Assembly: GCA_007695365.1 (NCBI GenBank)
Contig: REDV01000056.1
Location: forward strand, 1-54,764
From: Cryomorphaceae bacterium
GTDB taxonomy: Bacteria; Bacteroidota; Bacteroidia; Flavobacteriales_D; SKUL01
Length of the DNA: 54,764 nt
Direction: 5' to 3'
Shown piece after piece: positions 248 through 11,219 of the stretch. The translations under genes were made by a program, and so were the position numbers. Position 1 is the first letter of the stretch; each line of letters opens with the position of its first letter. The notes under the pieces are model-generated. The model was not told the DNA's origin. It worked only from the letters and a program-made list of their open reading frames with translations, and ran no database searches.

Positions 248-562
248 CTACACTTCCATCATTTTGGTCGGGTTCTGACGGCAATCGAATACATGTGCAA
301 CATAAACACAACCGTGCAGTTTGTCAATCCAATAGATGATTTTGTGATGGTTGCAGACGAGGTATCTGAATTCTTGAGGCCGATGCGACAACAATGATTC
401 ACGCTGGCCCATGCGTGGGTTTTTCTCTAACAGCATGGACTTTTCAATCAGCTCATTGACTACTCCGTCTGCAACTGAACGATTGGCGGTAACATCATAA
501 TAGTCGAAAATATCTTTTAGTCGTTCTTCGGCAAAAGCTGTCCAGTAAACGGCTAACCCCAT
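248..562 (-). CDS. RelE/ParE-family toxin of a type II toxin-antitoxin pair
   Basis: The product is 104 residues, the normal size for RelE/ParE toxins. It has an N-terminal strand and a helix beginning WTAFAEERLKDIFDYY, a central NPRMGQRE turn, the strand pair EFRYLVCNHHKIIYWID, and a C-terminal strand ending VFDCRQNP. These are the fold-defining elements of the family. It lies downstream of, and overlaps by 10 bases, the antitoxin gene at 553-795, the standard arrangement in which the antitoxin is made first. Whether it is a ribosome-dependent RNase or a gyrase poison cannot be told; the sequence looks slightly more ParE-like. Confidence 0.8.
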   Translation of the reverse strand: MGLAVYWTAFAEERLKDIFDYYDVTANRSVADGVVNELIEKSMLLEKNPRMGQRESLLSHRPQEFRYLVCNHHKIIYWIDKLHGCVYVAHVFDCRQNPTKMMEV

Positions 563-795
563 CGTTTAGCTTTCGATTTAAGCTGTTTGGCAGAAAGGTG
601 TTTTCCTGTTTCTGCATCTTTCAAAGACTGGTCAATATCATCATTCAGTTGCTGCTCGCTCATTGGCTTCAGGTTTTGCTCGTAGCCTAAGGCCTTCTTC
701 TCCCTCAACAATGCCTCAAGTGCTGAAATGAGTTCTTCATTTTGAAGACGAAGAAACTCCTGAACAAAATTTATTTTTCGGGTTTGAATATCCAT
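553..795 (-). CDS. antitoxin of the RelE/ParE pair
   Basis: This 80-residue acidic/basic protein starts with an amphipathic region containing FVQEFLRLQNEELISALEAL. It ends in a charged helix, SEQQLNDDIDQSLKDAETGK, followed by a lysine-rich tail ending KRWG. This two-part shape (dimerising N-terminus, toxin-wrapping C-terminus) is common in Bacteroidota antitoxins paired with RelE/ParE toxins. No clear ribbon-helix-helix or HTH motif is visible. The assignment rests on size, position directly upstream of the toxin, and the 10-base overlap with it. Confidence 0.72.
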   Translation of the reverse strand: MDIQTRKINFVQEFLRLQNEELISALEALLREKKALGYEQNLKPMSEQQLNDDIDQSLKDAETGKHLSAKQLKSKAKRWG

Positions 796-2523: not shown

Positions 2524-4019
2524 GCCAAAAGCCCACCTATATCCTCGCCCTCGACCAGGGAACCACCAGCTCGCGCGCATTGCTTATTGACCGTGCCGGA
2601 CGCGTTCACAGCAGTGCTCAACGCGACTTTAAACAGCATTTCCCGAAAGGGGGCTGGGTGGAGCACGATGCCATGGAAATCTGGGCCACCCAAAGCGCCG
2701 TGATGACCGAAGCCCTTGCAGCAAAAAATGTAAACGGATCGCAGATTGCAGCCATCGGCATCACCAACCAGCGCGAAACCACCGTGCTGTGGAACCGCCT
2801 CACAGGCAAACCCCTGTACCGCGCCATTGTGTGGCAGGACCGCCGCACCGCTCCGCGCATTGCCGAACTGATAGCACAAGGTCATGAGGCCATGATCACG
2901 GACAAAACCGGACTGGTTCCCGATGCTTACTTCAGCGCCTCTAAACTGCAATGGCTGCTCGACCACGTAGAAGGCGCCCGGGACATGGCTGAACGCGGGG
3001 AACTGGCCTTTGGCACCATCGACACCTGGCTTGTGTGGAAACTCACCGCAGGTGCCGTTCACGTTACCGACGTAAGCAACGCCAGCCGTACCATGCTTTT
3101 CAACATGCACGAGCGATGCTGGGACACCGAATTGCTCGATCTCTTCGATATACCTGAATCGGTACTGCCTGAAGTGCGCTCCAGCAGCGAGGTTTACGGG
3201 CATACATCGGGGCAGTTGCTCTACGCCAAAATCCCCATTGCGGGCATTGCCGGCGACCAGCAAGCGGCCCTTTTCGGACAGTGCTGCTTTGAACCCGGAA
3301 TGGCCAAAACCACTTACGGCACCGGCTGCTTTATGGTGATGAACACCGGCTACCAACCTGTGGTTTCCGATAACAAACTGCTCAGCACCGTGGCCTGGGA
3401 AATCAACGGCCAGATGACCTACGCGCTCGAAGGCAGTGTTTTTATCGGAGGAGCTGCTGTGCAATGGTTACGCGACAACTTGGGCTTTGTAGGTCATGCT
3501 TCCGAAACAGAGCGACTGGCCACCCAGCTGCCCGACAATGAAGGCGTGTATTTTGTGCCGGCCATGGCGGGTCTGGGCGCACCCCACTGGGACGCTAACG
3601 CGCGTGGGGCTTTTTTCGGAATCACCAGGGGCACCACCATCGCCCACATGACCCGCGCCACCCTGGAAGCCATTGCCTACCAGGTGCACGACGTGCTGCG
3701 CGCAATGGAGGCTGATAGGGGAGAAGCTTTGCGCGAAATGCGGGTGGACGGAGGAGCAGCCGGCAACAACTTCCTGATGCAATTTCAGGCCGATATGCTG
3801 CGCTGCACCGTGGCCCGTCCGGAGAACATTGAATCAACAGCCCTGGGCGCTGCCTTCCTTGCCGGACTTGCCGTGGGATATTGGGAGGATTTGGATACCC
3901 TGAAAAAAATCTGGCAAAGCGATCACAACTTTGAAGCGACCATGAACCGGGAGCAATCCGATGAATACCTCCGCTTCTGGCACAAAGCTGTGGAGCGGGC
4001 TAAAAACTGGTGCGAATGA
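2520..4019 (+). CDS. glpK: glycerol kinase
   Basis: The enzyme phosphorylates glycerol with ATP to give glycerol 3-phosphate, the substrate of the upstream dehydrogenase. The 499 residues match the FGGY kinase family. The N-terminal phosphate loop [16 protein letters not shown] is at residues 9-24. [12 protein letters not shown] and AIVWQDRRT follow in domain I, and the glycerol-binding region holds DTWLVWKLT. The ATP-domain motif TYGTGCFMV and the C-terminal [17 protein letters not shown] complete the set. The ATG overlaps the end of glpD (ATGA), so the two are translationally coupled. One base separates the stop from the glpF start. Confidence 0.97.
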
Positions 4020-4020
4020 T

Positions 4021-4761
4021 ATGGATACACTTGTAGCTGAATTTGTAGGAACTTCCCTGCTCCTGGCCATGGGTTGCGGCGTGGTGGCCAATGTGGTGCT
4101 CACGGGCACCAAAGGGCATCAGGGCGGTTGGATTGTCATCACTACCGGATGGGCGTTGGGCGTGTTTATCGGCGTGGTAGTCGCCGGCCCCTACAGCGGT
4201 GCGCACCTCAATCCCGCCGTGAGCATTGCCCTGGCTGCCGTTGGCTACTTTGATTGGAGCATGGTGCCCGGATACGTGGGTGCACAAATCCTAGGCGCCA
4301 TGTTCGGCTGCGGACTGGCGTGGCTGATGTACCGCGACCATTTCAACATCACCCCAGAATCGGAGCTCAAATTTGCGCCCTTCGCCACCCGACCGGCCAT
4401 TCGCAATCTGCCCTCCAATTTTTACTCCGAAGCCCTGGGCACATCGGTGCTGATTATCGTAATTCTTTACGCCACAGAGCCCGCCCTTGCCGACGGAACA
4501 CCCATAGGCCTCGGCGCCCTGGGAGCACTTCCGGTGGCGCTGCTGGTTTGGGTGATTGGTCTGGCGCTGGGCGGTACCACGGGTTATGCCATCAATCCGG
4601 CCCGCGATCTGGGTCCGCGACTGATGCACCAAATCCTCCCCATCAAGGGCAAGGGCACGAGCGACTGGAGCTATGCTTGGGTTCCGATTTTGGGGCCCAT
4701 TGCAGGAGCGCTGATTGCAGCCGGCATATTCATGTTGCTGAGCGCCGGGAGTATGGTGTGA
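4021..4761 (+). CDS. glpF: glycerol facilitator / aquaglyceroporin (MIP family)
   Basis: This is an inner-membrane channel for glycerol entry. I place the start at the ATG at 4021, one base after the glpK stop, giving 246 residues beginning MDTLVAEFVGTSLLL; an in-frame ATG at 3961 lies inside glpK and would add a hydrophilic tail foreign to the family. The two NPA boxes of the aquaporin pore are at residues 64-66 (HLNPAVS) and 192-194 (INPARD). The Asp after the second box (NPARDLGPR) is a mark of glycerol-conducting members. Six membrane helices can be followed. The last 71 codons recur as a damaged copy at 10908-11120. Confidence 0.95.
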   Translation: MDTLVAEFVGTSLLLAMGCGVVANVVLTGTKGHQGGWIVITTGWALGVFIGVVVAGPYSGAHLNPAVSIALAAVGYFDWSMVPGYVGAQILGAMFGCGLAWLMYRDHFNITPESELKFAPFATRPAIRNLPSNFYSEALGTSVLIIVILYATEPALADGTPIGLGALGALPVALLVWVIGLALGGTTGYAINPARDLGPRLMHQILPIKGKGTSDWSYAWVPILGPIAGALIAAGIFMLLSAGSMV

Positions 4762-4772
4762 TGAAATGAGTC

Positions 4773-4803
4773 ATGAGCCGATTACGCCCTCTAATCGGCT
4801 CAT
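4773..4803 (+). promoter_or_regulatory. perfect 12-bp inverted repeat upstream of fic (operator candidate)
   Basis: ATGAGCCGATTA at 4773-4784 is repeated as its exact reverse complement at 4792-4803, with a 7-base spacer. A second palindrome with nearly the same half-site sits 44 bp downstream (centre to centre, about four helical turns) at the fic start. No T-run follows, so an operator is more likely than a terminator for the glp operon. The Fic protein's own C-terminal winged helix is the obvious candidate ligand; that is inference. Confidence 0.6.
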
Positions 4804-4817
4804 ATATGGTGTATATC

Positions 4818-4846
4818 TGAGCCGAATAATGCGTACATTTGGCTCA
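4818..4846 (+). promoter_or_regulatory. second inverted repeat, ending on the fic start codon
   Basis: TGAGCCGAAT at 4818-4827 and ATTTGGCTCA at 4837-4846 are inverted copies with one mismatch and a 9-base spacer. The half-site matches that of the perfect palindrome at 4773-4803 (TGAGCCGAWT). The right arm covers most of the predicted -7 box (4834-4841) and the A of the fic ATG, so a bound protein would block initiation. Confidence 0.55.
4834..4841 (+). promoter_or_regulatory. predicted -7 box for fic
   Basis: TACATTTG fits the Bacteroidota -7 consensus TAnnTTTG. Its last base is five bases before the A of the fic ATG, so transcription would begin at or next to the start codon and the message would be leaderless. 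No good -33 TTG is visible at the usual distance, which lowers confidence. The decayed copy downstream keeps the box as TAAATTTG (11193-11200). Confidence 0.4.
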
Positions 4847-5949
4847 TGCTTTACAACTGGCAGCTACCTGATTGGCCTGATTTCTCTTACAATGAGGACG
4901 AAATTATGGGCAATGTTCTCGCGTACACCGAGCGTATGGGAAGGGTGAGTGGCATGGTGAACGCACTTTCTGATGAAGTTGAAGCGGAGGTGGTTATTGC
5001 AGCCCTCCTTGCAGAAGTCGTGAAGACATCAGAAATAGAGGGGGAATACCTCAGTCGGGAAGACGTGATGTCGTCCATACGAAACAACCTCGGCATCAAC
5101 GCCACTCAGCAAATTGTGAGAGACAAGAGAGCCAATGGAATTGTGAAGATGATGCTTCATGTGCAGAAATCGTTTACGCAGCCCTTGAGCGAATCGGAAC
5201 TGTTTGCATGGCACTACTTGCTGATGGAAGGCAATCAGTACATCAAGGCAGGGGCATGGCGCTCATCTGCCGATCCCATGCAGGTAGTTTCGGGTGCTGC
5301 CGGAAGGGAAAAGGTGCATTTTGAAGCTCCACCGTCAGCGAGCGTGCCGAAAGAGATGAAAAAATTCATCCGCTGGTTCAACGATACGGCACCAGGTGGA
5401 CAGTCGGCCATCGCGTTTGCGCCGGTACGGTCTGCCCTGGCGCACCTGTATTTTGAAAGCATTCACCCGTTTGAGGATGGTAACGGAAGGATTGGGCGTG
5501 CACTGTCAGAAAAAGTACTCTCTCAGCACGCGGGTCGGCCGGTGATACTGAGTCTTTCACAGGTTATTGAATCCAACAAAAAGGCTTACTACGCTGCATT
5601 GAAAAACGGACAACAATCGAATGAAGTGAGTGCCTGGCTTCGCTATTTTACCGGTGTCATCAAGGACGCACAGCACGCCGCCGAAGAGCAGATTGCATTT
5701 GTGATCAAGAAAACCCGCTTTTTTGACGAACACCGTGAAGCCCTTGAACCGCGCCAGCTCAAAGCGCTCAAAAAGATGTTGGACCAAGGACCTGATGGCT
5801 TTGAAGGAGGAATGAGTGCCGGGAAATACTCGGGCATCACGGGCGTATCTAAAGCCACCGCCACCCGCGACCTTCAGGAACTGGTAGAAAAAGGAATCCT
5901 CGTTCCGTCCGGTGAAGGCAGAAGCCGAAGGTATTTGTTGGTGATTTGA
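4846..5949 (+). CDS. Fic-family protein AMP-transferase with DUF4172 N-terminus and C-terminal winged helix
   Basis: Fic enzymes transfer AMP (or another phosphate-containing group) to hydroxyl side chains of target proteins. The core motif HPFEDGNGRIGR is at residues 207-218 with the catalytic His207 and the nucleotide-binding Asn/Arg intact. A class II inhibitory helix TSEIEG (61-66; consensus S/TxxxEG/N) lies upstream, so activity is expected to be self-restrained. Residues 1-80 (NWQLPDWPDFSYNEDEI) look like DUF4172. Residues about 320-367 form a winged helix (GVSKATATRDLQELVEKGI). The 367-residue length is normal for this architecture. There is no adjacent antitoxin, as expected for class II. 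The gene is preceded by two palindromes and is convergent with the peptidase fusion. Confidence 0.93.
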   Translation: MLYNWQLPDWPDFSYNEDEIMGNVLAYTERMGRVSGMVNALSDEVEAEVVIAALLAEVVKTSEIEGEYLSREDVMSSIRNNLGINATQQIVRDKRANGIVKMMLHVQKSFTQPLSESELFAWHYLLMEGNQYIKAGAWRSSADPMQVVSGAAGREKVHFEAPPSASVPKEMKKFIRWFNDTAPGGQSAIAFAPVRSALAHLYFESIHPFEDGNGRIGRALSEKVLSQHAGRPVILSLSQVIESNKKAYYAALKNGQQSNEVSAWLRYFTGVIKDAQHAAEEQIAFVIKKTRFFDEHREALEPRQLKALKKMLDQGPDGFEGGMSAGKYSGITGVSKATATRDLQELVEKGILVPSGEGRSRRYLLVI

Positions 5950-10907: not shown

Positions 10908-11120
10908 TGGGTGATTGGCATGTCCCTTGGCGGCACCACGGGTTATGCCATCAATCCGGCCCGCGACATTGGCCCGCGACTGATGCACCAAATCCTCCCC
11001 ATCAAGGGCAAGGGCAGCAGCGACTAGAGCTATACGTGGGTTCCGATTTTGGGGCCCAATGCAAGAGCGTTGATTGCAGCCGGCATATTCATGTTGCTGA
11101 GCGCGGGGAGTATGGTGTGA
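10908..11120 (+). pseudogene. glpF relic: last 71 codons of a second aquaglyceroporin gene, with internal stop
   Basis: This stretch aligns without any gap to the end of the intact glpF (4549-4761, constant offset 6359), with about 19 differences in 213 bases by hand count (roughly 91 percent). It encodes GlpF residues 177-246, including [10 protein letters not shown], but the Trp codon of the SDW segment is TAG, giving a premature stop. There is no upstream two-thirds of the gene. Several differences are silent or conservative (LALGG to MSLGG, DLGP to DIGP). That suggests the copy diverged while functional, perhaps in a related strain, before it decayed here. Confidence 0.85.
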
Positions 11121-11219
11121 TGAAATGAGCCATGAGCCGATTACGCCCTCTAACTGGCTAATGATTGAGTTGTATTTGAGTCGATTCAAGTTTAAATTTG
11201 GCTCACGAGCCACAACTGG
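11121..11219 (+). repeat. degenerate copy of the fic leader (operator/promoter region)
   Basis: The duplication continues past the glpF stop into the copy of the fic upstream region (partner 4762-4860), still gap-free but only about 75 percent identical by hand count. The left arm of the first palindrome survives exactly at 11132-11143. The right arm is damaged, and the second palindrome keeps TTTGGCTCA. The position of the fic ATG is ACG (11205-11207). Similarity stops after ACAACTGG at 11219, so no fic coding sequence follows. It is a relic, not a working promoter-gene pair. Confidence 0.75.

What the first reader, a model, noticed from the sequence alone, without database searches (positions are those of the whole stretch)
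4773..4846. Two matched palindromes spaced four helical turns at the promoter of a Fic gene with its own winged helix
A perfect 12-bp inverted repeat (ATGAGCCGATTA) and a second one with the same half-site (TGAGCCGAAT, one mismatch) are 44 bp apart centre to centre. The second covers the -7 box and the first base of the start codon. The encoded Fic protein has a C-terminal winged helix. The simplest reading is that Fic binds these sites and controls its own expression, so that an AMP-transferase would also be a transcriptional autoregulator. A decayed version of both sites survives at 11132-11205.
Basis: partly seen in the sequence, partly recalled or inferred. Interest (0 to 1): 0.6.

Follow-up and report, generated by a model that had tools for sequence, protein, structure and literature searches.

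The report
Self-controlling Fic enzyme with matching operators
The two DNA palindromes in front of this Fic gene are almost certainly docking sites where the Fic enzyme's own DNA-binding domain sits to shut its gene off; sites of this kind are kept across many bacterial phyla and change in step with the residues that would read them, but no binding was measured here.

Summary
O1 (4773-4803) is a perfect 12-bp dyad. O2 (4818-4846) has the same half-site, lies 44 bp away and ends on the A of the fic start codon. A relaxed form of the dyad occurs nowhere else in the 3.5-Mb genome except in a decayed 312-bp copy at 10908-11219.

The prediction to test was conservation with compensating changes, and it holds. 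74 of 79 leaders (Bacteroidota, Nitrospirota, Verrucomicrobiota, Proteobacteria, Acidobacteria and others) carry four like half-sites in the same frame; 0 of 234 control stretches do. The four half-sites change together, and with the recognition helix: on a tree built without the DNA-binding domain, residue 336 ranks first of 330 columns for changes coinciding with half-site changes. Across 160 genes Lys336 goes with C at half-site position 6 (57/57), Asp337 with C at position 3 (55/55, against 0/105).

Best reading: the Fic binds its own promoter and start codon and represses itself. CccR of Yersinia pseudotuberculosis is a published precedent, so the principle is known. What appears new is the family-wide two-dyad operator fixed on the start codon, with lineage-specific promoters nested inside, and a readable recognition pattern. 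Binding and repression were not measured.

The parts
4773..4803 (.). Operator O1, perfect dyad ATGAGCCGATTA-N7-TAATCGGCTCAT
   Evidence: unique in the genome with O2 and one relict
4818..4846 (.). Operator O2, dyad TGAGCCGAATA-N7-CATTTGGCTCA, ends on the A of the start codon
   Evidence: same frame in 74 of 79 leaders
4812..4819 (+). TATATCTG, candidate -7 box with one mismatch, at the place used by 32 of 40 Bacteroidota leaders
   Evidence: sequence; promoter activity inferred
4834..4841 (+). TACATTTG, candidate -7 box inside O2; would give a leaderless mRNA
   Evidence: sequence; TATATTTG at this place in L113 and L114; inferred
4846..5949 (+). fic, 367 aa, DUF4172-Fic-wHTH
   Evidence: model pLDDT 93 matches 8cil at Z 39.1, rmsd 2.4 over 347 residues
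5026..5043 (+). TSEIEG (residues 61-66), class II inhibitory motif (S/T)xxxE(G/N)
   Evidence: sequence; motif as defined in PMC10628234
5464..5499 (+). HPFEDGNGRIGR (residues 207-218), Fic active-site motif
   Evidence: sequence; invariant core in 44 aligned relatives
5749..5940 (+). winged-helix domain (about residues 302-365)
5851..5889 (+). predicted recognition helix, residues 336-348 (KATATRDLQELVE); residues 336 and 337 go with half-site sequence
10908..11219 (+). decayed 312-nt copy of glpF 3' end, fic leader and first codons of fic
   Evidence: 86% identity

Best explanation
O1 and O2 are a double operator read by the winged helix of the Fic encoded directly behind them. Fic dimers bind the two dyads, which overlap the promoter and cover the start codon, and block transcription, so that the amount of this potentially toxic enzyme is held low by negative feedback. 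Shown here: the sites, their conservation in frame, their joint change, and their co-change with the recognition helix. Inferred: binding, repression, dimer occupancy. A further and weaker inference, from the Coxiella relative CbFic2, is that operator-bound Fic is held in a dimeric, de-AMPylating state, so that the operators would also tie the enzyme's activity to its copy number; this last step is not part of the confidence given.
For: Dyads unique to fic in the genome. Blind dyad scan of 395 genomes lands on fic leaders (8 of 10) or apparent fic remnants (2 of 10). 74 of 79 leaders with the four-half-site frame, 0 of 234 controls; spacing 43-45 bp in 139 leaders. Half-sites of one locus agree with each other above all 500 shuffles. 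Residue 336 first of 330 columns for co-change, 16 of 33 changes, on a tree without the wHTH; K336 with C6 57/57, D337 with C3 55/55 against 0/105. No recurrent neighbour that could be the regulator. A full-length structural relative, CbFic2, binds DNA through this domain; CccR represses its own promoter through palindromes.
Against: No binding or expression data. The D337/C3 link rests largely on one deep split. The co-change p-value ignores branch lengths, and the cleaner taxon set was chosen after a first, weaker run (p 1.1e-4). 42 of 75 relatives at 40-45% identity and 9 of 88 at 35-40% show the fixed 44-bp frame; most of the latter have another array. CbFic2 bound random DNA with nanomolar affinity, so specificity of the domain is not a given.
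Confidence: 0.88

Rival explanations
1. The palindromes are RNA hairpins in the fic leader that sequester the start codon or terminate transcription, not protein-binding DNA.
For: The region folds well as RNA (-39.7 kcal/mol, z -4.2), as any pair of palindromes would; O2 covers the start codon.
Against: The promoter candidates lie between O1 and O2 or inside O2, so O1 would not be transcribed from them; no terminator-like site; the spacing between dyads is fixed at 43-45 bp; in the TGCGG dialect half-sites also stand as direct repeats; half-sites follow the recognition helix.
Confidence: 0.03
2. Another host regulator binds the dyads and controls fic.
For: A dyad alone does not say which protein reads it.
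Against: The sites occur only at fic in this genome, are kept across phyla that differ in their regulators, no neighbouring gene recurs, and the half-sites change with the Fic's own recognition helix.
Confidence: 0.03
3. Fic binds the dyads but activates its own gene, or switches from activator to repressor with dose.
For: O1 lies upstream of the promoter candidates, where activators bind; two sites allow a concentration-dependent switch. Nothing here measures the sign.
Against: O2 covers the start codon and a -7/-10 candidate, a repressor position; CccR represses.
Confidence: 0.06

Closest known systems
CccR, Yersinia pseudotuberculosis (PMC9755527)
   Same: Class II Fic with C-terminal HTH that binds palindromic sequence in its own promoter as a dimer and represses itself (EMSA, footprint, ITC, lacZ fusion, as published).
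   Different: Its site is AGATAATCAT-N26-ATGATAATCT, one widely spaced pair in the outward orientation; here there are two inward dyads with 7-bp gaps, 44 bp apart, ending on the start codon. CccR is a secreted T6SS effector acting on FtsZ; nothing here shows secretion or target.
CbFic2, Coxiella burnetii (PDB 8cil, PMC10628234)
   Same: Closest solved structure: same domains over the full length (Z 39.1, rmsd 2.4, 36% identity); binds DNA through the HTH; DNA promotes a dimeric de-AMPylating state.
   Different: Its natural DNA site is not known (random DNA was used); its recognition helix in the alignment reads SRTTAYREL, so a half-site other than TGAGCC is expected. Presented as a predicted host-acting effector.
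SoFic / Sofic defence protein (PDB 3eqx, 3zcn; PMC12249575)
   Same: Same overall architecture; PADLOC SoFic profile E 1.5e-48.
   Different: Below NCBI's SoFic equivalog cut-off (58 vs 550 bits); 17-18% structural identity; EcSofic has a downstream antitoxin gene (AS1), none recognised here.

Membership tests
Class II DUF4172-Fic-wHTH adenylyltransferase (CbFic2/SoFic type) | DUF4172, Fic domain and C-terminal winged helix in one chain | tested here: met
Class II DUF4172-Fic-wHTH adenylyltransferase (CbFic2/SoFic type) | Fic motif HxFx(D/E)GN(G/K)R and N-terminal inhibitory motif (S/T)xxxE(G/N) | tested here: met
   HPFEDGNGRIGR at 207-218, TSEIEG at 61-66 (translation)
Class II DUF4172-Fic-wHTH adenylyltransferase (CbFic2/SoFic type) | AMPylation activity | not testable with these tools
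   needs purified protein
SoFic equivalog (NCBIfam NF046030) | Score over the curated cut-off (550 bits) | tested here: not met
   58 bits
Autorepressing Fic (CccR kind) | Palindromic sites in the gene's own promoter | tested here: met
Autorepressing Fic (CccR kind) | Sites read by the Fic's own HTH | tested here: inconclusive
   strong indirect support from co-change; binding not measured
Autorepressing Fic (CccR kind) | Repression of its own promoter | not testable with these tools
   needs a reporter
CccR operator geometry | Outward pair of 10-bp boxes 26 bp apart | tested here: not met
   two inward dyads, 7-bp gaps, 44 bp apart
Fic toxin-antitoxin module | Adjacent antitoxin gene | tested here: inconclusive
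   no ORF of 90 codons or more recurs beside fic in 78 loci; smaller ORFs not tested; in the window a convergent gene ends 26 bp downstream of fic

The most novel reading that the evidence does not exclude
A whole superfamily of Fic enzymes carries a self-reading operator that travels with the gene across phyla and evolves in several dialects under a simple recognition code (Lys336 with C6, Asp337 with C3), and operator occupancy doubles as an activity switch that holds the enzyme as a de-AMPylating dimer until it is freed.
Probability: 0.3. Interest if true: 0.75.

Novelty: new variant of a known kind. Interest (0 to 1): 0.6.

Why it matters
The natural DNA target of CbFic2 is an open point in its paper (random DNA was used; PMC10628234), and DNA binding by SoFic had not been demonstrated when that paper appeared. 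The pattern found here should help to predict an operator from a recognition helix, and so gives a cognate DNA for activity, dimerisation and structure work. It also suggests that self-repression, shown experimentally for one protein (CccR), is the common state for a gene family found on chromosomes, plasmids and putative viral contigs. The linked protein/operator pairs are a natural data set on how a repressor and its site change together.

Tried and rejected
Half-site-like hits elsewhere in the genome were inspected. C129:20739/20787 lie in an 8-bp minisatellite, C51 is a lone half-site, and the C135 hit is a lone half-site in a similar TGAGCC/TTAGAC repeat context.

RNA-hairpin reading rejected. 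The sigma-70 scan found nothing in the window leader.

A fixed 44-bp search failed for most relatives at 35-40% identity (9/88). A free half-site scan then showed another array (TGCGG dialect, + - + + - +).

The first co-change test with looser half-sites (198 taxa) was weak, p 1.1e-4 before correction; it sharpened with clean half-sites. Choosing the cleaner set after seeing the first result is a caveat. Mutual information without a tree was confounded by clade structure.

A literature search for the half-site words found no paper on Fic regulation among the 20 of 46 hits listed; a text search for Fic, autoregulation, HTH and inverted repeat found only CccR.

Full report
WHAT IS THERE. Between glpF (3961-4761) and fic (4846-5949) lie two dyads. 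O1, 4773-4803, is ATGAGCCGATTA-N7-TAATCGGCTCAT, perfect. O2, 4818-4846, is TGAGCCGAATA-N7-CATTTGGCTCA, and its last base is the A of the ATG. Their spacing is 44 bp. The fic product has DUF4172, Fic and a C-terminal winged helix, an intact Fic motif (HPFEDGNGRIGR) and a class II inhibitory motif (TSEIEG). Its AlphaFold2 model (pLDDT 93) matches CbFic2 (8cil) at Z 39.1 over 347 residues, rmsd 2.4. Residue 336 is the first residue of the predicted recognition helix, 336-348.

MORE THAN CHANCE. A relaxed dyad occurs three times in the 3.52-Mb genome: O1, O2 and a relict; the reversed pattern never occurs. A blind scan of 395 genomes of the phylum for the strict dyad found ten places in eight genomes. 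Eight, including O1 of the window, are directly upstream of a fic of this family. One genome has three dyads in a row 44 bp apart. The other two sit beside apparent fic remnants: L148 keeps the operator and the first nine or so codons, and L142 has a weak C-terminal match, E 0.015.

CONSERVATION. Of 79 leaders (78 homologues and the window), 74 contain four like half-sites in the two-dyad frame; 0 of 79 shuffled leaders, 0 of 76 upstream stretches and 0 of 79 in-gene stretches do. In a wider set of 265 leaders, 139 exceed the maximum of 795 shuffles under this fixed geometry. Their spacing is 43-45 bp throughout, and O2 ends 0-2 nt past the last base before the start codon in 116 of 139. By protein identity: 87 of 98 leaders at 45% or more, 42 of 75 at 40-45%, 9 of 88 at 35-40%. 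The last group mostly uses another dialect, TGCGG(A/T/C)GAATA, in another array (+ - + + - +); with a free half-site scan 165 of 265 leaders exceed the highest of 265 Markov-shuffled leaders (a few of these, such as L078 and L356, are low-complexity repeats and were dropped later). The inward pair 18 bp apart is common to both arrays, which suggests it is the unit one dimer reads (inference).

CO-CHANGE. All four half-sites of a locus agree over positions 3-7 far better than half-sites of different loci (3.9-4.4 of 5 against 3.0-3.1; observed above all 500 shuffles for every pair). They also follow the protein. SKATATRD goes with TGAGCC. SRATATRD goes with TGAGGC, TGAGTT, TGAGGT, TGAGCT and similar, never TGAGCC. 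SxDTALRDI goes with TGCGG, SKDSAIRD with TGCAAC, SNTTAKRD with TGGACC and TPETAKRD with TGACCC. On a tree built from residues 1-295 only, residue 336 ranks first of 330 columns for changes on the same branch as half-site changes (16 of 33; hypergeometric p 1.9e-7). The test ignores branch lengths, so I rely on the rank more than on p; a looser set of 198 taxa also ranked it first, with p 1.1e-4. Across 160 genes K336 goes with C at position 6 in 57 of 57, and D337 with C at position 3 in 55 of 55 against 0 of 105. Lysine facing the G of a C-G pair and aspartate facing C fit ordinary major-groove chemistry (general knowledge).

PROMOTER. In Bacteroidota the lineage-specific -7 box TAnnTTTG overlaps the left arm of O2 in 32 of 40 leaders, but in only 0 of 20 alphaproteobacterial and 1 of 18 other leaders. 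Outside Bacteroidota, TATAAT-like boxes in the right arm of O2 are common (11 of 20 alphaproteobacterial, 13 of 18 others), though 22 of 40 Bacteroidota leaders also score there, helped by the TAAT of the half-site itself. So the operator frame stays while the promoter inside it seems to change with the host. In the window both places have a candidate (4812-4819 with one mismatch; 4834-4841 a match). The close relatives L113 and L114 keep TATATTTG at the second, which would make the mRNA leaderless (inference).

MOBILITY. The gene sits next to different genes in different genomes: no ORF of 90 codons or more recurs in more than 3 of 78 loci. Relatives at E 1e-30 or better are on 440 plasmid records, 120 of them conjugative, and on putative viral contigs, some with the same array (L161, L162). 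The sister genome G001 has a 93% identical fic with both dyads behind a different upstream sequence. The relict at 10908-11219 in the window and L148 elsewhere suggest that fic can be lost while its operator stays.

MECHANISM. Most likely the Fic represses its own transcription by binding O1 and O2. This is inferred from the above and from CccR, where EMSA, footprinting, ITC and reporters show it (PMC9755527). CbFic2 shows that DNA binding promotes a dimeric, de-AMPylating state (PMC10628234); whether cognate operator DNA does so here is open. No antitoxin neighbour of 90 codons or more was recognised, so self-repression plus the inhibitory helix may be the main restraint on toxicity (inference; smaller ORFs were not tested).

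VERDICT. Observation confirmed, interpretation supported but not proven by experiment. The principle is known from CccR; the double-operator frame on the start codon, its spread over phyla and the recognition pattern are, as far as the searched papers show, not described.

Noticed in passing
window 10908-11219: 312-nt copy (86%) of the glpF 3' end, the fic leader and the first codons of fic, about 6 kb downstream of the original; looks like the scar of a duplication whose fic has been lost.
   Followed up: partly
window 248-795 (-): Two overlapping small genes (104 and 80 aa) that look like a ParE/RelE-type toxin and its antitoxin; judged from the sequence only.
   Followed up: no
L006 1440-1575 (genome contig C129, near its end): An 8-bp minisatellite of GATGAGCC / GATTAGAC units; similar units seem to recur on contigs C96, C142 and C149 and account for several half-site hits.
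   Followed up: no
L144, L150, L151 (G490), L240, L046: Leaders with three dyads in a row, 44-48 bp apart, instead of two; the frame appears extendable.
   Followed up: partly
G001 (same genus): Carries a 93% identical fic, a partial second copy and a 38% identical fic, so several members can share one cell; cross-talk between dialects would be testable.
   Followed up: no
L161, L162 (IMG/VR contigs): Fic of this family on putative viral contigs with the four-half-site array in the alphaproteobacterial dialect.
   Followed up: partly
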